Of a stretch of 64,000 bases of DNA, positions 23,143 through 36,172 are shown piece after piece; the stretch's first letter is position 1, and each line of letters starts with the position of its first letter. The position numbers and the translations under genes are program-made. The notes beneath the pieces were generated by a model. It did no database searches and had not been told where the DNA came from. It saw nothing but the letters and a program-made list of their open reading frames with translations. The stretch is from Acidimicrobiales bacterium (lineage in GTDB: Bacteria; Actinomycetota; Acidimicrobiia; Acidimicrobiales; MedAcidi-G1), in the NCBI GenBank assembly GCA_029245675.1, contig JAQWOV010000016.1, forward strand, positions 1 through 64,000, read 5' to 3'.

Positions 23143-23709
23143 ATGACTGAGTTTCGTAGAACTGGCATTCATCACGTTGCTTACGCCTGCCGCGACATCG
23201 AAGCAACAAGGCATTTTTATGAAGACCTTATGGGGATGCCGCTAGTTCATACTGAGATTAAGCGTGAAGGTGACAGTTATTTCCGTCACCTTTTCTTTGA
23301 CACAGGAGATGGCTCTTGCATTGCTTTTTTTCAAGTTTCTGGAATGGGGGAGTCTTCAAATTATTCAACACAGATATCTACCGGAAACGGCCTCCCTGTG
23401 TGGGTAAACCATGTCGCATTCGCAGCAGATGAAGAACGAACAGAATCTGTAAGGCAACGAATGACGGAAGACGATGTAGTCCCCTTTATGGAAGTAGATC
23501 ATGGCTGGTGCGTCTCTCTTTATTACATTGATCCAAATGGAATCATGGTTGAAATGTGTAGAGATACGTCAGGGTTTGCAATTGACCCAGAATTAGCTAC
23601 AGAACGAATGACTGCAACAGATAACACTGATCATTCCACCTTTCTTTCACCGATGGACCTTGAAGGTTTACGAGGCTTCGACCTGCTTCCCGCTGAAAGA
23701 GATTCCTGA
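23143..23709 (+). CDS. VOC-family (glyoxalase/extradiol dioxygenase fold) protein
   Basis: 188 residues with paired beta-alpha-beta-beta-beta units. Likely metal ligands are in GIHHVAY (His9/His10), VNHVAF and the Glu of DPNGIMVEMCRD, the usual His-His-Glu arrangement. The stop overlaps the next start (TGATG), so it is translated together with the AhpD-like gene. The family covers lyases, epimerases, isomerases and ring-cleavage enzymes; the substrate is not evident. Confidence 0.8.
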   Translation: MTEFRRTGIHHVAYACRDIEATRHFYEDLMGMPLVHTEIKREGDSYFRHLFFDTGDGSCIAFFQVSGMGESSNYSTQISTGNGLPVWVNHVAFAADEERTESVRQRMTEDDVVPFMEVDHGWCVSLYYIDPNGIMVEMCRDTSGFAIDPELATERMTATDNTDHSTFLSPMDLEGLRGFDLLPAERDS

Positions 23710-24368
23710 TGCCTCGCCTTCGGCAAGTTCGTCGATCTGAATTGCATTGCGGAGCAGAACCGGTTTTTCAACTCTTGTTTGGTGATCGAGATCCGGTAGA
23801 TGAACCAGGAACAGACACTGGAACACCAGGGGACTGGTGGACAGTATTTGCTTTGGTTCCCGATGTCTTTGATCATGCCACCCATGGCTTCGCTCTTTAC
23901 CGATCGGAAAAAAGACTTATTGACCCACAATTACGTGAATTAGGTCAAACTCGAGTTGGTTGGAACATAGGTAGCCGGTTTGTTTACTCCCAACACTGCA
24001 AATCTTGCCGAACAGTAGGTTTCTCTGAAGAACAGATTGCTGCTATTTCCCACTGGGAAGAAGCGGACTGTTTTAATGAAGCACAACAAGCAGTGTTGGC
24101 ATATACCGATGGATTGACTTTAGGAAATGGTGACGTTTCAAATGAGGTCTTTGAAGAGTTGCAGAAACATTTAAGCGATGAAGAAATTCTCGAATTCACT
24201 TACGTCACATGTACGTATGCGATGCATGCAGTCATGAGCAAAGCCTTAAAATTAGAATTTGACGCAGATGATGGACCGGTAGAAGAAATACCTGGCCCTC
24301 ATGAAAGTTTAAGTGTTGAGCACACTCGCCAAAAGTTAAGACTTATCGTGGGCGGAAACGAAGAGTAA
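23709..24368 (+). CDS. Carboxymuconolactone decarboxylase/AhpD-like protein
   Basis: 219 residues, all-helical CMD fold. A CxxC pair (HCKSCRTVGFSEEQ) occupies the redox-active place of AhpD-type members, followed by FNEAQQAVLAYTDGLT. CMD proteins are peroxidase partners or decarboxylases. It is coupled to the VOC gene, whose metal fold often acts on oxidised small molecules. Convergent with the dehydrogenase gene 10 bases away. Confidence 0.8.
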   Translation: MPRLRQVRRSELHCGAEPVFQLLFGDRDPVDEPGTDTGTPGDWWTVFALVPDVFDHATHGFALYRSEKRLIDPQLRELGQTRVGWNIGSRFVYSQHCKSCRTVGFSEEQIAAISHWEEADCFNEAQQAVLAYTDGLTLGNGDVSNEVFEELQKHLSDEEILEFTYVTCTYAMHAVMSKALKLEFDADDGPVEEIPGPHESLSVEHTRQKLRLIVGGNEE

Positions 24369-27053: not shown

Positions 27054-27968
27054 CTAGTTTTCAAGTCGACTTAAAAGAAGAGCGTGAGTGCGGGCACTTT
27101 CATCTGGGTTTCTACCAATTTCTAACGCAGAGAAATCAGTTGTTCCAGCATCTCTAAGACCATCAAGTTGTGAAGAAACTTCCTCTTCGGTCCCGACAAT
27201 AGCCACTTCGCCAGGCTGGTCTACGCCTTCACGATCAAGCATCGCCCGATAACTCGGCAACTGCCCATACATGGCGAACATTTTGGAGAGATCGCTTCGT
27301 GCTTCAGCCTCATTGTCGGTAACACAGATTGGCAAACTACACACGATTCGAGGAGAAGGTCTTCCTGCCTCGGCGGCTGCCGCATTAATCGTGGGAGCAA
27401 TGTGAGAAGCGATTGTTTTAGGGCCGGTCATCCAGAGGATCGTTCCATCACTTCTATGACCAGCGACACGCAGGGCTTGTTCCCCCAATGCTGCAACCAT
27501 GACGGAAGGCGCATTTCCGGGGCGAGAAGTATTCATATGGGCAGTGAATGCCTCTCCGCTGTAATCTGAAGATCCTTCTTCGAGTAAAGGGTTGAGTATG
27601 GAGAGATAGTCAATGAGGTGACGAATTGGTTTATCAAAAGACATACCCAGCATGCCTTCCACTACAGGCTGATGAGATAACCCGATTCCTAAAACTAGAG
27701 ACTGATCTCCCATAACTGCTTGAGTGGTAAGAGCTTGACCAGCCAGCATTGATGGGTGACGCGGATAAGTAGGGATAACAGCAGTGCCTAATTCAAGAGA
27801 AGGCAAACTTCCTCCAATTGAAGTAAATACAGTTAGGGCATCAATCAGGCCGGTTTGTGCAAGCCACCAGCCAGCAAAACCCTCATCCGCACTTTGAGCG
27901 GCATGATCTTTGAGCGCCCCAACATCGTTTGTACCTAAAAGACTGGAAGCATTAAGGGAAATACGCAC
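27054..27968 (-). CDS. LLM-class F420-dependent oxidoreductase
   Basis: 304 residues from GTG with an AAAGGAGA ribosome site. It has the luciferase-like TIM barrel: WWLAQT near strand 2, LELGTAVIPTYPRHP, and LVLGIGLSHQPVVEGMLGM, a set seen in actinobacterial F420 enzymes. Third gene of the operon headed by the selenoprotein, 9 bases after the SRPBCC gene. F420 rather than FMN is preferred from the actinobacterial context. Substrate unknown. Confidence 0.85.
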   Translation of the reverse strand: MRISLNASSLLGTNDVGALKDHAAQSADEGFAGWWLAQTGLIDALTVFTSIGGSLPSLELGTAVIPTYPRHPSMLAGQALTTQAVMGDQSLVLGIGLSHQPVVEGMLGMSFDKPIRHLIDYLSILNPLLEEGSSDYSGEAFTAHMNTSRPGNAPSVMVAALGEQALRVAGHRSDGTILWMTGPKTIASHIAPTINAAAAEAGRPSPRIVCSLPICVTDNEAEARSDLSKMFAMYGQLPSYRAMLDREGVDQPGEVAIVGTEEEVSSQLDGLRDAGTTDFSALEIGRNPDESARTHALLLSRLEN

Positions 27969-27977
27969 AACTCTCCT

Positions 27978-28442
27978 TTACTTTGCTGAAGATTCAGCAG
28001 CAATTTTTATTTGGTCTACAAATGCAGTGATGACCTGCTGCGATAAGGCTATAAAACCATCGCTTTCTCCATTAGGAAGCGGGTCAATCAGTAAAGACCA
28101 TACCATTAAACACCCGTCTCCATGATCGGTGAGGGCAGTGGTTCCTTGATAAAGAGTTACCGGAGCGCCAGAAACTTCATATACGCGCCTCCAAGGAGGC
28201 TCAAAAGAAATAACTTCTTCACGCAGCTCTTGCCCGGGAAGCGGAAGAGTAAGGACCGCCCCTAAACCATGAGGAGCAGGGTCACCTTCAATAAGGTATC
28301 CACCAACATTTTTTTCAATTAGCCCAAGCAGCACGTTCCAAGCCACATCACGCGGGGCATCTATCTCACGCTCCACAACAAAAGTTGTGTATTCCTTCTT
28401 CACATATGTGGAAGGAGCATCAGAGATGCCTTCCTCAGTCAT
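27978..28442 (-). CDS. SRPBCC (START/Bet v 1-like) family protein
   Basis: 154 residues from the ATG at 28442, which has an AGAAGG ribosome site; a GTG at 28463 would give 161. The pattern FVVEREIDAPRDVAWNVLLG opens the helix-grip fold that binds hydrophobic ligands. The start overlaps the selenoprotein stop by 8 bases (28435-28442), so translation is coupled. It may be a ligand carrier, cyclase or a partner that presents substrate to the neighbouring redox enzymes. Confidence 0.75.
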   Translation of the reverse strand: MTEEGISDAPSTYVKKEYTTFVVEREIDAPRDVAWNVLLGLIEKNVGGYLIEGDPAPHGLGAVLTLPLPGQELREEVISFEPPWRRVYEVSGAPVTLYQGTTALTDHGDGCLMVWSLLIDPLPNGESDGFIALSQQVITAFVDQIKIAAESSAK

Positions 28443-29616
28443 TGGAATCGCCTTCTGGGTCACGAACCTGAGTCATGGGAAGAATATAAGTGGTGAAATA
28501 GGAACCAGCTTCTTGCTTCTCCAATGCAATGCGAGCACGTTGGATCACATCACCAGCTTTAGTCTGAGTCACAAACCAAGTTTCAGCTTGTCGCGCCCCA
28601 GGAACACCTTCGCTCAAGGAGAGAGAAGCTTCTTCATAAAAGTTCTTGATATCTGCTCCTAATTTCGTTGGGTCTCCCGGTAGGCCAACAGAAGTCCAGT
28701 CTTCTCCATCAGCGATTCTGGCAAACAGAGTTATGATTTCTGGAACTTGCTCCGGAGTAACTGCTTTGCCGACAGTGGTTCTTCCATATTTTTCATAGGA
28801 TCTCCGCCATACTGGCAACAAGCCACGTGCTTCCGCTTCAGCAGGGTGCTTGCTGCTGTCATCAGCAGGAGGAATTGTGCATGAAAGAGGAGCATCTGCG
28901 TCGTCGTTTATTTCTTCCGGGTAGTCAACTAATACTGGGCCAGACTCTGCTTTCAGCAAATCAAATGCAGCATCAAGAACTTGATGTTGGAATACTGAAT
29001 CACCAGGCTTCCCTAAAGGACGACCTAGAGGAAATTCACAGTGAAGAGCACGTGGTGGTTGAGTAGATTCTATTTGCTCACGGATAATAGAGATTGCAAC
29101 AGTTGCTAAACCTGACTGTTCAAATACTGAGGCGAGCGTACCCACGGTACGCGTGCATAGTGGTCAAACAGGAGTAAGTAGTACTACGTCTACTTCCTCT
29201 TCGAGCAATATGTTTGCCGCAGCTGGACCGGTGTCTAGCCGAATAGTTTCTAAAGTGTGATCAGGCTGGGCGCCCATAAAAGAGATATGAGTATCAGATA
29301 CTGATCCTATTTTTCCTTCAGCGGCCATCTCGTTAAGACGGTCGAGTGGAATCACGACATTGGAATCAACTACCCAACCGGTTCGATCAAAATTTGGGCT
29401 GAAGTGCCCTAGGGTAAAGTCGTCTTTTTTGCCAGATAAAACTGTAAAACCTTGGTCTCCTGGATTCCAATCGGCGTTGCCTTCTTGGTTTAATCCGGCT
29501 GTTGTTACAACCGCCACTCGACACTCTGAAAGCGGTTTTGGGCTTACCCATGGAACCTCATCAAAAGAATATCCCTCTAACCGAGAAAGCATCTTCCTTA
29601 CAACCTTGTCGCTCAT
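28435..29616 (-). CDS. GrdB/PrdB-family selenoprotein with in-frame UGA (Sec151)
   Basis: One 393-residue frame if the UGA at 29164-29166 is read as selenocysteine. Before it the protein reads SHFSPNFDRTG-like (GHFSPNFDRTG), NVVIPLDRLNEMAAEGKIGS and VDVVLLTPV; after it, PLCTRTVG and ALHCEFPLGRPLGKPGD, all in the same frame and all family hallmarks of the glycine/sarcosine/betaine/D-proline reductase B-type proteins. The UGA falls exactly at the redox residue, giving UxxC (Sec151, Cys154). A bacterial SECIS-like hairpin follows. Gene callers would give a 150-residue piece and a 236-residue piece starting at GTG 29145. GrdA, GrdC and GrdD are not nearby, so a classical glycine reductase is unlikely; the true reaction is unknown. 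First gene of a three-gene operon. Confidence 0.87.
29136..29152 (-). promoter_or_regulatory. Candidate bacterial SECIS element
   Basis: In the mRNA the UGA is followed by 11 bases, then GCGUACC, loop GUG, GGUACGC: a perfect 7-bp stem. The loop starts with G and lies 18 bases after the UGA. This meets the published bacterial SECIS pattern as I remember it (upper stem 4-16 bp, loop 3-14 bases with G in the first two, spacing 16-37). A further two GC pairs extend it past a 2x2 internal loop. Confidence 0.8.
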
Positions 29617-29650
29617 TCAAATCCCCATTCTCAGCAGAAATTACGATATC

Positions 29651-29676
29651 CACAAGTTACCGTGCAGTAACTTGTG
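29651..29676. promoter_or_regulatory. Perfect 10-bp inverted repeat operator in divergent promoter region
   Basis: CACAAGTTAC (29651-29660) faces GTAACTTGTG (29667-29676) across CGTGCA. A further CAAGTT (29680-29685) faces the AACTTG at 29669-29674, making a second overlapping pair. The site lies between the divergent selenoprotein and acyl-CoA dehydrogenase operons and looks like the binding site of a dimeric repressor. No regulator gene is adjacent. Confidence 0.65.
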
Positions 29677-29798
29677 TTGCAAGTTTTGCTTTACCTCTAC
29701 GTTTTCAGGTTTGTAGCACTCGGAATATGCATTCTTGTTTATATTCTGTAGGGTCGCGTATTGGAGATCAATCCTGATAACAGTAAAGGAACAAAGTC

Positions 29799-30956
29799 TT
29801 GGCTACAGATAAAGCTCTTGCCGATGAAATGATTTCAACCATTCGTTCGTGGGTGGATCGTGAAGTAATCCCAAATGCAGGCGAGTTTGAACAAGAAGAC
29901 AAATTTCCACAAGCCATGTTTGACCAAATGTGCGAGTTTGGTTTATTTGGCGCAACCATTCCTGAAGAATATGGAGGCCTAGGACTCGATATCACTACCT
30001 ATACCCGCATTATCGAAGAACTATCAAGAGGATTCATGTCTTTGGCAGGAATCTTAAACACCCACAAAATTGGGGTTTCGATGATCTATCGCTATGGCAC
30101 CGAAGAACAAAAGCAACGATTTCTTCCTCGCATGGTAGATGGTTCATTCCGAGCATCTTTCTCGCTCTCTGAACCAGACGCAGGAAGCGATACCGGAGCA
30201 CTGCGGTGTAAAGCAGAACAAGATGGTGACGAATGGGTTATTAACGGAACCAAAATGTGGGTCACAAATGGCATACGCTCATCTCTGGTAATGCTCCTAG
30301 CCCGCACTCCTGATGACCGAATCACCTGTTTTCTAGTAGAGAAAGAACCGGGTGAAAAATTTGAAGGCATTACCGCTTCAAAGAAAATCAGCAAGCTCGG
30401 TTATCGCGGCTTAGAAACTGTCGAAATGTCTTACGTAGACCACAGAGTGCCAGACACCAACGTATTAGGAGGAGAGGAAGGATTAGGCAACGGAAGAAAG
30501 TACGCCCTTTCAGCTCTAGAACTTGGACGCATCAATGTTGCTTCCAGAGCAGTAGGAGTGGCTCAAGCCGCATTCGATGCTGCAATGGCTTATGCCCAAG
30601 AACGTGAAACATTCGGTCAACCAATATTTAAGCATCAAGCAATTCAATTCAAGCTCGCAGAAATGGCAACAAAGCTGCAAGCGGCACGTCTCATGACATA
30701 CGATGCAGCAGCCCGCGCCGACGCGGGTGAACGAGTAGATATGGAAGCGGGAATGGCAAAACTCTTCGCATCAGAAACTGCGTATGAAATTGCCACTGAT
30801 GCCCTAAGGATTCATGGAGGCAATGGCTACACCACTGAATATCCAGTAGAAAGGTACTTCCGAGATGCGCCACTAATGATTATCGGCGAAGGAACGAGCG
30901 AAATTCAGAAAATGGTTATAGCCCGCAAATTATTAGACCGTTATTCTGTGGAGTGA
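29799..30956 (+). CDS. Acyl-CoA dehydrogenase
   Basis: 385 residues from a TTG start, supported by AAAGGA (29785-29790) eight bases upstream; the next ATG would remove the first helix. Family motifs include [37 protein letters not shown] and the C-terminal GEGTSEIQ with the catalytic Glu. First gene of a five-gene plus-strand operon with almost no gaps. Electrons would go to ETF. Confidence 0.93.
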
Positions 30957-30957
30957 A

Positions 30958-33222
30958 ATGAAACAACCCGGCATTACCTCAACTTCAGTTCTTGGCAACC
31001 CTGTACTGCGCCGTGAAGACGCAACACTTGTTCGCGGACAAGGAGAATATGTAGGAAACCAGATCATCGAAGGAGCACTCCATTGCCATTTCGTTCGGTC
31101 CACTGTCGCTCATGGGAAAATTATTTCTATTGAAACAAGCGAAGCCGAATCCATGCCTGGAGTGCAGGCGATATATACCGCTGACAATCTTGGATTAGAA
31201 GACCGCGAAGGGGCCATGGATTTTTACGCCTCAGAAATGACTCGCCCGTATCTCGCAAGAGACAGGGTCCGATTTGTCGGAGAACCAATCGCAGTAGTCG
31301 TAGCAGAAACCGTCTATCAAGCTGCCGACGCCGCAGAGAATATTTGGGCAGATATTGAACCTTTAAATCCCGTCGTAACTCTTCAAGATTCTCTCGCCGC
31401 AGAAACCGTTCTTTTTCCCGATATGAATCACAACGTTTGTTGGGAAAATGAAATAGAAGAGCCAATAGATTTCTCAGAATATGAAGTTGTCATATCACAG
31501 GATGTTATTAACTCCCGAGTTGCCCCGGTATCTATAGAAACACGAGTGGCAGCGGCAACATGGGAAGATAACCGTCTCATCTATTGGGCATCTTCACAAG
31601 GAACACATGATTTTCGTGACGAAGTTGTTTCTGCCTTAGGGATAAAAAAAGAAGACATAAGAGTTTTCGTTAAAGACATTGGTGGTGGTTTCGGAGCAAA
31701 GGGTTACGCATCTGAAGAAGAAATTATTATCGCTCAACTAGCACGCCTTCTACAAAAACCTGTTCGATGGATGGAAACTCGTACTGAAAATCTAATCGGC
31801 TATGTTCATGGCCGTGCCCAAGACCAGACGGTAACAATGGCTGGAACTTCACAAGGACGTATACAAGCCTTCCGACTAGAAGTCCTTCAAGACTGTGGCG
31901 CCTACCCGAAATGGGGCGCCTACCTCCCAGAATTCACTCGACAACTTGCTTGCGGCGTCTATGACATAGACCGAGTGGAATGCGAGTTCAAGTCTCTCAT
32001 GACAAATACTGCTCCAACCTGTGCTTACCGAGGGGCTGGACGCCCTGAAGCCACCGCAGCTATTGAGCGAGCTGTCGATTTATTTGCCGCCGAACTAGGA
32101 ATGGACCCCGCAGAAGTAAGAAGAATAAATTTCATACCCTCTCATGCTTTCCCTTTTACCACAGCAACAGGAACTCTTTATGACAGCGGCGATTATGAAA
32201 AAGCATTAGATGCAGCGCTTGAAGCATCTGACTATAAAGGTCTACGAGCCGAACAAGAAACACGACGCCAAAACAAGAGCACTAAACAAATAGGCATAGG
32301 CGTAGCAACTTATGTCGAAATTACAGGATTTGGGGGAAGCGAATATGGCCATGTCTCCTTACGACCAGATGGGACGATATTAGCTACTACCGGAGCCACC
32401 CCGATCGGAACGGGACATTTCACGACATGGGCCATGATCGTTGCCGACAAGCTCGGCATACCTATGGAAAAAATTGAACTCTTCCACGGAGATACAGATA
32501 TTGTGCCTACCGGCGAAACCACCGGCGGATCTCGATCCGTTCAACTCGCTGGCTCTGCTATGGCAGATGCTTCCGACAAGTTAATTGAAATCGCCAAGCA
32601 AAAAGCAGCTGACCTCCTTGAGGCATCTCCAGAGGATGTTGTATTAAATACACAAGAAGGGGAGTTTCATGTAGCAGGAACACCGGCTATCTCACATTCG
32701 TGGGCAGATATCGCAGAATCGACTGAAGACTCAATCGCAGGATTATCTGACTTCTCACAAGAAGGCGCTACTTTTCCTTTCGGAACCCACATCGTTGTTG
32801 CTGAAGTAGACCTTGAAACTGGCAAAGCAACAATCCAACGAGTTATAGCTGTTGATGACTCCGGAGTGATCATGAATCCACTTTTAGCAGCTGGACAGAT
32901 ACATGGAGGATTAGCACAAGGAGTGGCTCAAGCACTTCTTGAAGAATTCAAATATGATTCTGATGGAAATCCTCAAACCACTAATCTTGCTGACTACACC
33001 GCTATTTCTACAATGGAACTTCCGTCCTATGAACGTTCCTTTACAGAAACTCCATCTCCTAGTAATCCGCTAGGAGCAAAAGGAATCGGCGAATCAGGCT
33101 CAATCGGTTCTACCGCAGCGGTTCAGAGCGCAATCATTGATGCACTTGCACCACAAGGTATTCGACACCTAGACATGCCACTTACCCCAGAAAAAATCTG
33201 GGCGGCACTCCAGACAGTCTGA
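30958..33222 (+). CDS. Molybdenum hydroxylase large subunit, form II CoxL-like
   Basis: 754-residue xanthine dehydrogenase/CO dehydrogenase-family subunit binding molybdopterin. GGGFGAKG (242-249) and AYRGAGR (356-362) line the active site; Glu712 in GIGESGS is the catalytic base. AYRGAGR is the form II signature; form I CO dehydrogenase has AYxCSFR, so CO oxidation is not implied and hydroxylation of an aromatic or aldehyde is as likely. The small [2Fe-2S] and medium FAD subunits that normally accompany it are absent from the window. Starts one base after the acyl-CoA dehydrogenase stop. Confidence 0.9.
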   Translation: MKQPGITSTSVLGNPVLRREDATLVRGQGEYVGNQIIEGALHCHFVRSTVAHGKIISIETSEAESMPGVQAIYTADNLGLEDREGAMDFYASEMTRPYLARDRVRFVGEPIAVVVAETVYQAADAAENIWADIEPLNPVVTLQDSLAAETVLFPDMNHNVCWENEIEEPIDFSEYEVVISQDVINSRVAPVSIETRVAAATWEDNRLIYWASSQGTHDFRDEVVSALGIKKEDIRVFVKDIGGGFGAKGYASEEEIIIAQLARLLQKPVRWMETRTENLIGYVHGRAQDQTVTMAGTSQGRIQAFRLEVLQDCGAYPKWGAYLPEFTRQLACGVYDIDRVECEFKSLMTNTAPTCAYRGAGRPEATAAIERAVDLFAAELGMDPAEVRRINFIPSHAFPFTTATGTLYDSGDYEKALDAALEASDYKGLRAEQETRRQNKSTKQIGIGVATYVEITGFGGSEYGHVSLRPDGTILATTGATPIGTGHFTTWAMIVADKLGIPMEKIELFHGDTDIVPTGETTGGSRSVQLAGSAMADASDKLIEIAKQKAADLLEASPEDVVLNTQEGEFHVAGTPAISHSWADIAESTEDSIAGLSDFSQEGATFPFGTHIVVAEVDLETGKATIQRVIAVDDSGVIMNPLLAAGQIHGGLAQGVAQALLEEFKYDSDGNPQTTNLADYTAISTMELPSYERSFTETPSPSNPLGAKGIGESGSIGSTAAVQSAIIDALAPQGIRHLDMPLTPEKIWAALQTV

Positions 33223-33229
33223 TTTCGTA

Positions 33230-34396
33230 ATGGAAGAAGTAAATCCGTATTTAATTACACGGATGCAAGATCATCAGTTCTCCATTTTTGCCGAAATGTC
33301 GATTTTGGCGGCAGAAACTAGCGCCATCAATTTAGGTCAGGGGTTTCCTGATACAGACGGCCCTGAAAAAGTAACTGAAGCTGCGATTCAAGCCATTCGA
33401 GACGGACGTAACCAATATCCGCCAGATAGAGGTATAGAGCAATTAAGAACAGCAGTGGCAGAACATCAAAGACGGTTCTATAGCCAAATAGTTGACCCAA
33501 AAGATGTTGTCATATCGACCGGCGCAGCAGAGTCTCTTTCTGCAGCCACACTTGCACTGGTTTCACCAGGAGATGAAGTAGTTCTATTTGAGCCCTATTT
33601 TGATCTTTATGCTTCCTGTATTTCTCTAGCTGGAGGGATAAGAAAAACAGTAACGCTTAGGGAGCCAGACTATTCATTCGACATTGATGAGCTCGCTAAA
33701 CAAGTGACGTCGCGCACTCGATTTATACTCCTCAACACTCCACACAACCCGACCGGAAAAGTTTTCTCACTTGATGAAATGCAAGAAATAGCTCAAATCG
33801 CTATTGATAACGATGTTCTAGTAGTCACTGACGAAGTTTATGAACACATGACCTATGACGGGAGAGAACATATTCCAATCGCAACTTTGCCTGGCATGGC
33901 AGAACGGACCCTTACTGTTTCTTCTGCCGGAAAGTCATTTGGCTTAACTGGATGGAAAATCGGTTGGTGCCATGGACCTACAGAAATAACGAAAGCAGTG
34001 CATACCGTAAAACAGAATTTAACATTCGCAAGCGGAGCACCTTTCCAACCAGCAATCGCCGCAGCATTAGCTTTAGACGACGAGTACTTCGAAGAGTTAG
34101 CCGAAGATCTTTGCGCCAAACGTGACTTAATTTCCGATGGGTTATCGGATATTGGATTTGAAGTATTTCCTGCTTTTGGCACCTACTATGTCACCGCAGA
34201 TGTGAGACCACTTGGGTATGAAGATGGAATGAGTTTCTGTTTAGACATACCTAAACGCTGCGGAGTTGTGGCTGTACCCACTGAAGTCTTTTACGATCAC
34301 CCAACAGCTGGAAAATCCATTGTCCGTTTTGCCTACTGTAAACAACCCGACGTGCTCAATGAAGCACTCGAAAAATTGTCCGTCCTAAAGGTCTGA
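33230..34396 (+). CDS. PLP-dependent aminotransferase class I/II (methionine/glutamine-type)
   Basis: 388 residues of fold type I. Lys235 in SSAGKSFGLTGWKIGW binds PLP; NTPHNPTGK (Asn173) and VTDEVYEH (Asp201) bind the cofactor. The INLGQGFPDTDGP opening is that of the kynurenine/glutamine transaminase K and YbdL group, which act on methionine, glutamine or aromatic amino acids. The next gene is an omega-amidase-like nitrilase, a recognised partner that hydrolyses the alpha-ketoglutaramate-type product. Confidence 0.9.
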   Translation: MEEVNPYLITRMQDHQFSIFAEMSILAAETSAINLGQGFPDTDGPEKVTEAAIQAIRDGRNQYPPDRGIEQLRTAVAEHQRRFYSQIVDPKDVVISTGAAESLSAATLALVSPGDEVVLFEPYFDLYASCISLAGGIRKTVTLREPDYSFDIDELAKQVTSRTRFILLNTPHNPTGKVFSLDEMQEIAQIAIDNDVLVVTDEVYEHMTYDGREHIPIATLPGMAERTLTVSSAGKSFGLTGWKIGWCHGPTEITKAVHTVKQNLTFASGAPFQPAIAAALALDDEYFEELAEDLCAKRDLISDGLSDIGFEVFPAFGTYYVTADVRPLGYEDGMSFCLDIPKRCGVVAVPTEVFYDHPTAGKSIVRFAYCKQPDVLNEALEKLSVLKV

Positions 34397-34397
34397 A

Positions 34398-35162
34398 ATG
34401 CAGATATCAGCAATCCAGCACGACATTATTTGGGAAGACCCTCAAGCTAATCATGAGCGACTAGCACCTCTCATAGAACAGGCGGCCGCAACAGGAACAG
34501 AAATGATCGTACTGACAGAAATGTATGCCACTGGATTTTCAATGAACAGCCAAGTTATAGCTGAACCCCCAGATGGAACATCTGTCAATTTTTTGTCAGA
34601 TCAGGCAAAAACTCATGGGGTATGGGTCGCTGCATCAGTTCCCATTAAAGACAAAGAAGAAGAAAATCCAGTAAACCGACTGGTGCTCGCAGGTCCAGCA
34701 GGAGAGAACTACCACTACGACAAGCGTTACCCATTTTCTTTCGCCCAGGAAGACCAGCATTACCGTGCCGGAGACAGATCAACCACAGTTTCAATAAACG
34801 AGGTTCGTTACACTCTCACCATTTGCTATGACCTACGTTTTAGTGATGCTTACTGGCCGTCAGCTCCAGAAACAGACTGTTACTTAGTTGTTGCTAATTG
34901 GCCAGAAACTCGACGTCACCACTGGAGAAGCCTCCTAGTCGCTCGCGCAATAGAAAACCAAGCATACGTAGTAGGTGTAAATCGTGTCGGATCTGATCCA
35001 AACGTCTCATATGTCGGCGACAGTCTGGTTATTGATCCCCTTGGGGAAATAATCGCAGAATGCCCGCCAGGGATGGAAGCAACGATAGTGGCAGAAATAG
35101 ATCCGGAAAAAGTAAAGGAAATTCGAACTAGTTTCCCCTTCATGGACGATCGAAAAACGTGA
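34398..35162 (+). CDS. Carbon-nitrogen hydrolase, omega-amidase-like
   Basis: 254-residue nitrilase-fold enzyme with the full triad: Glu41 (LTEMYATGF), Lys109 (YDKRYPFSF) and Cys143 (TICYDLRF). The motif around Cys (CYDLRF) and the FS..EDQ.Y loop fit omega-amidase (YafV/Nit2), which hydrolyses the amide of alpha-keto acids produced by glutamine transaminases. It follows the aminotransferase by one base, so the two likely act in series. Confidence 0.9.
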   Translation: MQISAIQHDIIWEDPQANHERLAPLIEQAAATGTEMIVLTEMYATGFSMNSQVIAEPPDGTSVNFLSDQAKTHGVWVAASVPIKDKEEENPVNRLVLAGPAGENYHYDKRYPFSFAQEDQHYRAGDRSTTVSINEVRYTLTICYDLRFSDAYWPSAPETDCYLVVANWPETRRHHWRSLLVARAIENQAYVVGVNRVGSDPNVSYVGDSLVIDPLGEIIAECPPGMEATIVAEIDPEKVKEIRTSFPFMDDRKT

Positions 35163-36172
35163 CACCTGTTCCTTCGATTCTTGAACGGGCGCGCCAACTA
35201 GTAGAACCCGAGGTAGAAACAGCAGTTAATAGTCTGTGCCCCGAACTCCTTCACCCGGTGCGGTATCACTTCGGATGGGAAGAAATTGATGGGTCTCCCT
35301 CTGCAACTAAATCCGGTAAAGGGCTTCGACCAGCATTAGCAATCCTTTCCGCAGAATCAGTAGGAGCATCAGCGCAAACTGGAGCGTTAGGTGGAGCTGC
35401 AGTAGAACTTATTCATAATTTTTCTCTAATACACGATGACATAATCGACGGAGACACGGAACGACGACATCGAACTACTGTCTGGAAGGCATTCAGTGTC
35501 GATGACGCGGTGATAAGCGGAGACGCATTGCATACTTTGGCATTCCAGATTCTCCTTGAACAGTCCTCTCCGGAAAAAGTTGCAGCAGCATCACGATTAG
35601 CGAAAGCAACTACATTAATGCTCGCAGGTCAAGCAGCAGACATGGCCTTTAACAATCAGCGAGTAGTCACATTTGAAGATTGTGTCTCTATGGAAGCTGG
35701 AAAAACAGGAGCTCTTCTTGGTTGTGCTGCCAGTATCGGCGCAGTCTTATCAGGAGCAGAACATAATCAAATAACAGCGTTAGATGAATACGGCCAAAAA
35801 TTAGGAATAGCATTTCAAGCAGTTGACGACATTCTAGGAATTTGGGGGAACCCCGAGATAACCGGAAAACCAGCTGGTAATGACTTACGGGAAAGAAAAA
35901 AATCAATGCCTGTCGCATTTACGCTTAGTCTAAAAAGTTCTGAATCTGAAGAGTTAGAAGCGATGTATGTGGCATCAAAAGATTTGAGCGAACCAGAAAT
36001 CAAGAAAGCAATGCAACTCATCGAAGAAGCAGGTGGGAGAGAACGGACACAAGAAGAGGCACAAACGCAATTAAATGGAGCCCTTGAAGCGCTACACAGT
36101 GCCGAACTTCATCAACGCCCTCTTGAAGAACTCAAAGAAATAGCAGTCTTTGTTAAAGAACGAGACCATTAA
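35159..36172 (+). CDS. Polyprenyl (isoprenyl diphosphate) synthase
   Basis: 337 residues from GTG, overlapping the amidase stop by 4 bases. The first aspartate-rich motif DDIID (93-97) and the second DDILG bind the diphosphate-Mg complex; KGLRPAL binds IPP. Phe88 sits five residues before the first motif; product length (C15-C20 or longer) cannot be set from this. Its place in an acyl-CoA/amino-acid operon has no obvious reason. Confidence 0.9.
   Translation: MTPVPSILERARQLVEPEVETAVNSLCPELLHPVRYHFGWEEIDGSPSATKSGKGLRPALAILSAESVGASAQTGALGGAAVELIHNFSLIHDDIIDGDTERRHRTTVWKAFSVDDAVISGDALHTLAFQILLEQSSPEKVAAASRLAKATTLMLAGQAADMAFNNQRVVTFEDCVSMEAGKTGALLGCAASIGAVLSGAEHNQITALDEYGQKLGIAFQAVDDILGIWGNPEITGKPAGNDLRERKKSMPVAFTLSLKSSESEELEAMYVASKDLSEPEIKKAMQLIEEAGGRERTQEEAQTQLNGALEALHSAELHQRPLEELKEIAVFVKERDH

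What the first reader, a model, noticed from the sequence alone, without database searches (positions are those of the whole stretch)
28435..29616. Unannotated selenoprotein: GrdB/PrdB-family protein with Sec151 (UxxC) split in two by an in-frame UGA
A 150-codon frame ends with VVLLTPV at UGA (29166-29164) and continues in the same frame as PLCTRTVG..., matching the two halves of one B-type reductase protein. The UGA stands exactly where relatives have the redox Cys or Sec (VxPxxC), giving U-P-L-C. A perfect 7-bp hairpin with a G-starting GUG loop begins 11 bases downstream, within the bacterial SECIS spacing. Selenoproteins of this family outside anaerobic amino-acid fermenters have no clear function, and no GrdA/GrdC/GrdD is nearby.
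Basis: partly seen in the sequence, partly recalled or inferred. Interest (0 to 1): 0.92.

Follow-up and report, generated by a model that had tools for sequence, protein, structure and literature searches.

The report
Stand-alone PrdB-like selenoprotein, aerobic marine actinobacterium
A gene in an ocean bacterium is interrupted by a UGA codon that is almost certainly read as selenocysteine, giving a relative of the anaerobic proline/glycine reductases that occurs without their partner proteins and carries an extra C-terminal domain; that such selenoproteins exist in seawater was known, but what this one does is not.

Summary
On the minus strand, 28438-29616 is one 393-codon reading frame interrupted only by TGA at 29164-29166. 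That codon is TGA in 102 of 102 fetched loci (101 of this subfamily plus a paralogue; 89 distinct sequences) and TGC (Cys) in one full-length ortholog. A stem 11 nt downstream keeps its pairing through changes at a synonymous Arg codon. The genome has tRNA-Sec, adjacent selA and selB, and a selD that itself carries Sec. Selenocysteine at 151 is therefore close to certain.

It is a PF07355 homologue but not D-proline reductase PrdB: the PrdB model scores 100 bits against a cut-off of 300, and no PrdA/GrdE-type pyruvoyl subunit or GrdA is detectable in this oxidase-bearing genome, nor in 56 of 60 genomes with matches. It belongs to a well-supported separate clade with a C-terminal helical domain (about 240-388) that has no Pfam match and no clear solved-structure match.

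'PrdB' selenoproteins with UxxC were catalogued in Sargasso Sea and GOS metagenomes (2005, 2008), so this is a new variant of a known kind. Most likely it is a pyruvoyl-independent selenol/thiol reductase (Sec151 attacks, Cys154 resolves); the substrate is unknown.

The parts
28435..29616 (-). Selenoprotein gene, 393 codons plus stop: PrdB-like catalytic domain (residues ~27-237) and C-terminal helical domain (~240-388)
29164..29166 (-). In-frame TGA, codon 151, read as selenocysteine (U-P-L-C motif with Cys154)
   Evidence: TGA in 102/102 loci; TGC in the full-length ortholog L154
29136..29152 (-). SECIS-like hairpin GCGUACC-GUG-GGUACGC, 11 nt after the UGA
28438..28899 (-). C-terminal domain (from residue 240), helical, no Pfam match and no clear PDB fold match
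29617..29635 (-). Stretch before the ATG with a GGGGA ribosome-binding-site-like motif
   Evidence: read from the sequence; not tested
27978..28463 (-). Overlapping downstream gene: SRPBCC/polyketide-cyclase family protein (PF10604); near the selenoprotein gene in close relatives, orientation not conserved
27054..27968 (-). LLM-class F420-dependent oxidoreductase (TIGR03564), downstream neighbour; link not conserved across the wider clade

Best explanation
The gene encodes a selenoprotein. The ribosome reads UGA 151 as selenocysteine with SelB, tRNA-Sec and the downstream hairpin (strongly supported by comparative evidence; no protein data). The protein has a Rossmann-like, PrdB-type catalytic domain with a U-P-L-C redox motif at the N-terminus of a helix, plus a C-terminal helical domain. 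It works without the pyruvoyl subunit (PrdA/GrdE) and GrdA that the fermentative reductases need (their absence is shown by search; independence is inferred). Most likely the selenolate of Sec151 attacks a small electrophilic or activated substrate, Cys154 releases the product by forming a selenenyl-sulfide, and a thioredoxin-like donor regenerates the enzyme, with the C-terminal domain standing in for the partner subunit as lid or docking surface (all inference). It would serve detoxification or catabolism in an aerobe rather than Stickland fermentation (inference). The stated confidence is for the whole mechanism; for Sec at 151 alone it is about 0.98.
For: Recoding: TGA at the same codon in 102/102 loci and 29/29 rows of alignment A1. 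A Cys ortholog with the full C-terminal domain exists (TGC) and lies within the Sec clade. Arg156 is CGT with facing A or CGC with facing G in 87 of 88 distinct sequences; that pair is U-A in 30 and C-G in 22 of 53 sequences. Third positions inside the hairpin, other than the covarying one, are 89-100% constant against 33-75% outside; no substitution in the hairpin codons between the window and five relatives while 10-103 codons differ synonymously on either side. tRNA-Sec, selA and selB, Sec-containing selD, motif SHGAGUGCK. SelB is over its cut-off in 55 of 60 genomes with the gene family against 18 of 40 without, Fisher P 4e-7. Stand-alone: PF09338 and PF04723 occur in the same 7 of 100 genomes, not this one; 56 of the 60 genomes with matches lack both. 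Mechanism: U-x-x-C, D77, PR 188-189 and the PLG motif shared with PrdB; a pLDDT 91.7 model places U-P-L-C between strand 144-148 and helix 154-167. Aerobic setting: COX1 in the genome.
Against: No peptide or selenium-labelling data. Substrate and electron donor are not identified; gene neighbourhoods are not conserved. One paralogous lineage has U-P-L-D in place of U-P-L-C (L162), so a resolving Cys is not universal in the wider family. The genome is 94% complete, so absence of a partner from it alone is not absolute. The covariation and co-occurrence statistics are not corrected for phylogeny.
Confidence: 0.45

Rival explanations
1. A Sec-containing thiol:disulfide or peroxide-type oxidoreductase that merely reuses the PrdB fold: U151-C154 cycles through a selenenyl-sulfide, acting on proteins or peroxides rather than cleaving a bond in a metabolite.
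For: U-x-x-C at a helix N-terminus resembles the common redox motif; the GOS survey groups such UxxC families with redox proteins (PMC2398784); CMD/AhpD-family genes lie nearby in a few loci.
Against: The fold is Rossmann-like rather than thioredoxin-like; the conserved polar set (D77, R93, PR 188-189, PLGRPLG 196-202) suggests a small-molecule pocket; CMD proximity is seen in only a few lineages and was not tested against background.
Confidence: 0.3
2. It is a true D-proline reductase (PrdB) or glycine/betaine/sarcosine reductase component B.
For: Homology over about 200 residues to TIGR04483 and PF07355, with Sec at the same site.
Against: Scores a third of the PrdB equivalog cut-off (100 vs 300 bits); no PF09338 or PF04723 in the genome; separate clade with 100/99 support; 393 aa against a 238-position model; oxidase-bearing genome.
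Confidence: 0.03
3. The TGA is a real stop: pseudogene, sequencing error, or two separate proteins.
For: A standard ORF call gives two pieces.
Against: TGA in 102/102 loci from many assemblies; substitution pattern downstream like that upstream; covarying hairpin; Sec machinery present.
Confidence: 0.01
4. UGA151 serves mainly as a selenium-status switch, with both the 150-residue truncated form and the full protein functional.
For: Some termination at a Sec UGA is usual (general knowledge).
Against: The truncated product would end inside the catalytic domain just before the active site; nothing found here points to it.
Confidence: 0.03

Closest known systems
D-proline reductase 26-kDa subunit PrdB (TIGR04483)
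   Same: Homologous domain (residues 26-221), Sec in U-x-x-C at the same position, shared FPLDRL-like, PR and PLG motifs
   Different: No PrdA-type pyruvoyl subunit, score far under the equivalog cut-off, extra C-terminal domain of about 150 residues, oxidase-bearing host, separate clade
Glycine/sarcosine/betaine reductase selenoprotein B (GrdB/GrdF/GrdH; PF07355)
   Same: Superfamily membership over the gathering score (35.9 vs 22 bits)
   Different: Lacks the N-terminal half of GrdB (match starts at profile position 210), GrdE and GrdA
'Proline reductase PrdB' selenoproteins of the Sargasso Sea and GOS metagenomes (PMC1088965: 42 genes; PMC2398784: 235 genes, UxxC)
   Same: Marine, Sec-containing, pfam07355, UxxC; probably includes this clade and the 299-residue paralogues (inference)
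   Different: In the passages read, those surveys name it by homology and give no clade, C-terminal domain, partner test or function of its own
Fluoroacetate reductase FarB/FarE (GrdB/GrdE-like, PMC10838667)
   Same: GrdB-family Sec proposed to attack a C-F bond: precedent for chemistry on a non-amine leaving group
   Different: Anaerobic Synergistota, with a GrdE-like partner

Membership tests
Bacterial selenoprotein (UGA recoded as Sec) | In-frame UGA at a site where homologues have Cys or Sec | tested here: met
   TGA in 102/102 loci, TGC in L154, L148, L149, L155
Bacterial selenoprotein (UGA recoded as Sec) | Stem-loop shortly downstream of the UGA, with G in the apical loop, under selection | tested here: met
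   Stem starts 11 nt after UGA; GU-containing loop; covarying pair
Bacterial selenoprotein (UGA recoded as Sec) | Genome encodes SelA, SelB, SelD and tRNA-Sec | tested here: met
Bacterial selenoprotein (UGA recoded as Sec) | Sec detected in the protein | not testable with these tools
   needs mass spectrometry or 75Se labelling
PF07355 GRDB superfamily | Score over the Pfam gathering cut-off | tested here: met
   35.9 vs 22 bits; all 47 members of A2 match
D-proline reductase PrdB (TIGR04483) | Score over the equivalog cut-off of 300 bits | tested here: not met
   100.3 bits
D-proline reductase PrdB (TIGR04483) | Pyruvoyl-forming partner PrdA (PF09338) in the genome | tested here: not met
   0 matches in G000; 7 of 100 relatives, the same seven that have GrdA
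D-proline reductase PrdB (TIGR04483) | Sec in U-x-x-C at the homologous position | tested here: met
Glycine reductase complex | GrdA (PF04723) and GrdE (PF09338) encoded in the genome | tested here: not met
   absent from G000
D-proline reductase PrdB (TIGR04483) | D-proline to 5-aminovalerate activity | not testable with these tools
   enzyme assay needed

The most novel reading that the evidence does not exclude
The clade is a new class of selenoenzyme in oxygenated waters: a pyruvoyl-independent, single-chain relative of the Stickland reductases, whose C-terminal domain supplies what PrdA/GrdE supplies there, reductively cleaving an as yet unknown carbon-heteroatom bond (for example in haloacids or amines) in aerobic marine and soil bacteria.
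Probability: 0.25. Interest if true: 0.8.

Novelty: new variant of a known kind. Interest (0 to 1): 0.5.

Why it matters
Sec-containing 'proline reductase PrdB' ranks among the most abundant selenoproteins in surface-ocean surveys (PMC1088965, PMC2398784), yet oxygenated seawater is not where D-proline is expected to be fermented. Showing that the genomes that carry it lack the obligatory partner, that it forms its own clade in MAGs assigned to several phyla, and that it has an extra domain turns an annotation puzzle into a testable enzymology question. Standard gene callers also split the gene, so the function tends to be hidden in genome annotations.

Tried and rejected
Rfam: no SECIS family match; I believe Rfam holds few bacterial SECIS models, so uninformative. 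Fold searches: the full model gave only generic Rossmann-like matches (best Z 7.3, 144 residues, 3.5 A; best Foldseek E 8e-3); the C-terminal domain predicted alone (pLDDT 86.9) gave best Z 3.8 and no Foldseek match under E 1. No sequence relative in the PDB. Gene neighbourhood: no partner conserved across the clade; only among close relatives do the SRPBCC, F420-oxidoreductase, acyl-CoA dehydrogenase and molybdenum-hydroxylase genes stay together, and the selenoprotein gene is inverted relative to them in some. CMD/AhpD-family genes near it in a few lineages looked like a possible redox partner, but that family is common and no background was measured. PADLOC: nothing. Rejected: pseudogene, sequencing error, D-proline reductase.

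Full report
Observation. The minus strand at 29616-28435 holds one frame of 393 codons interrupted only by TGA at 29166-29164. Standard ORF calling gives a 150-residue and a 236-residue piece. Joined, the protein matches PrdB (TIGR04483, E 1e-28, residues 26-221, across the TGA) and PF07355 (35.9 bits, cut-off 22).

Is the TGA translated? A search of 100 related genomes found matches in 60, nearly all with exactly one internal TGA. Among 102 fetched loci (101 of this subfamily and one paralogue) the codon homologous to 151 is TGA in all 102 (some loci repeat the same genome; 89 distinct sequences across the site). A full-length ortholog in another actinobacterial genome has TGC there (L154), and more distant homologues in Roseomonas, Haematobacter and genome G087 also have TGC. 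Between the window and five relatives substitutions fall mostly at third positions both before and after the TGA, and none in the seven hairpin codons. Caveat: the named-genome scan used two peptide patterns and kept the best 80 of 373 relatives, so further Cys orthologs may exist.

SECIS. The stem GCGUACC-GUG-GGUACGC starts 11 nt after the UGA. Six pairs are general; the seventh is often open (30 of 53), leaving a five-base loop with a conserved GU. Arg156 is CGT in 56 and CGC in 32 of 88 sequences, a synonymous choice, and the facing base (first position of codon 160) is A with CGT in all 56 and G with CGC in 31 of 32. Pair counting gives 24 double-changed cells against 10.3 expected and 90.8% paired cells against at most 62.5% for slid versions. 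The window hairpin alone is not exceptionally stable. Phylogeny was not corrected for.

Machinery. The genome (1.87 Mb, 94% complete) has tRNA-Sec, selB and selA adjacent and selD with its own in-frame TGA in SHGAGUGCK. SelB over its cut-off occurs in 55 of 60 genomes with matches and 18 of 40 without; the five exceptions are 66-85% complete and two of them have selA.

What it is not. PF09338 (the GrdE/PrdA-type proprotein) and GrdA (PF04723) are absent here; they occur together in the same seven of 100 relatives, which serves as an internal positive control. Only four of the 60 genomes with matches are among those seven, and some of their matches are to their own GrdB. Cytochrome oxidase is present. 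So the protein cannot be filed as D-proline or glycine reductase.

Clade and architecture. A maximum-likelihood tree of the catalytic domain (45 rows, midpoint-rooted for drawing only) separates this family from PrdB, from the 299-residue paralogue of the same genome and from the alphaproteobacterial Cys forms with 100/99 support; members come from genomes named Actinomycetota, Pseudomonadota, Acidobacteriota, Chloroflexota, Myxococcota and Dormiibacterota (names of metagenome-assembled genomes can be wrong). The AlphaFold model (pLDDT 91.7) shows a Rossmann-like domain at 27-237 with U151-C154 between a strand and a helix, and a helical C-terminal domain. That domain has no Pfam family and, predicted alone (pLDDT 86.9), no clear PDB match, which does not prove a new fold.

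Mechanism. Motifs shared with PrdB argue for similar selenolate chemistry. In PrdB and GrdB a pyruvoyl partner takes part in catalysis (established biochemistry; Kabisch 1999 and Bednarski 2001, as cited in PMC1088965 and PMC10838667). Without it the substrate must be intrinsically electrophilic or the C-terminal domain must compensate; FarB, a GrdB relative proposed to cleave C-F (PMC10838667), is a precedent for the first. This step is inference. A general redox role is the main rival.

Novelty. Sec-containing 'PrdB' with UxxC was reported from the Sargasso Sea (42 genes, PMC1088965) and the GOS dataset (235 genes, PMC2398784), and reviews list it under D-proline reductase (PMC13188914, PMC9312934). 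I infer, without having their sequences, that these include the present clade. I found no description of the clade, the C-terminal domain, the partner-absence test or the SECIS covariation in the papers searched; hence a new variant of a known kind.

Noticed in passing
L012:7630-8529 (-), own genome contig C1: Second PF07355-type selenoprotein in the same genome (299 aa, U167-P-V-C-H-Q, no C-terminal domain), divergent from a MerR-type regulator gene; found in most relatives.
   Followed up: partly
L046 (own genome C22:31465-32388): SelD of this genome is itself a selenoprotein (SHGAG-UGA-GCK).
   Followed up: yes
L150, L151, L156, L157, L180 (genomes G068, G088, G019, G023, G077) and G056, G076: Seven of 100 genomes of the same order carry GrdA (with an in-frame TGA) and a PF09338 gene, that is apparent glycine-reductase-type systems, unexpected for this group.
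   Followed up: no
L162 (G071:C15:26306-26962): A PrdB-like Sec protein with U-P-L-D-H-Q, lacking the usual resolving Cys.
   Followed up: no
G178:C4:547417-548019 and G211:C19:14666-15280: PrdB-like frames with two in-frame TGA codons; could be two Sec residues.
   Followed up: no
window 23709-24368 (+): CMD/AhpD-family gene with a C-x-x-C (SQHCKSC) a few kilobases from the selenoprotein; CMD-family genes lie near it in a few other lineages.
   Followed up: partly
L049 and L050 versus window 27054-36172: The selenoprotein gene is inverted in place relative to its conserved neighbours between close relatives.
   Followed up: no
window 30958-33222 (+): Molybdenum-hydroxylase large subunit (xanthine dehydrogenase-like) without adjacent FAD or iron-sulfur subunit genes.
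   Followed up: no
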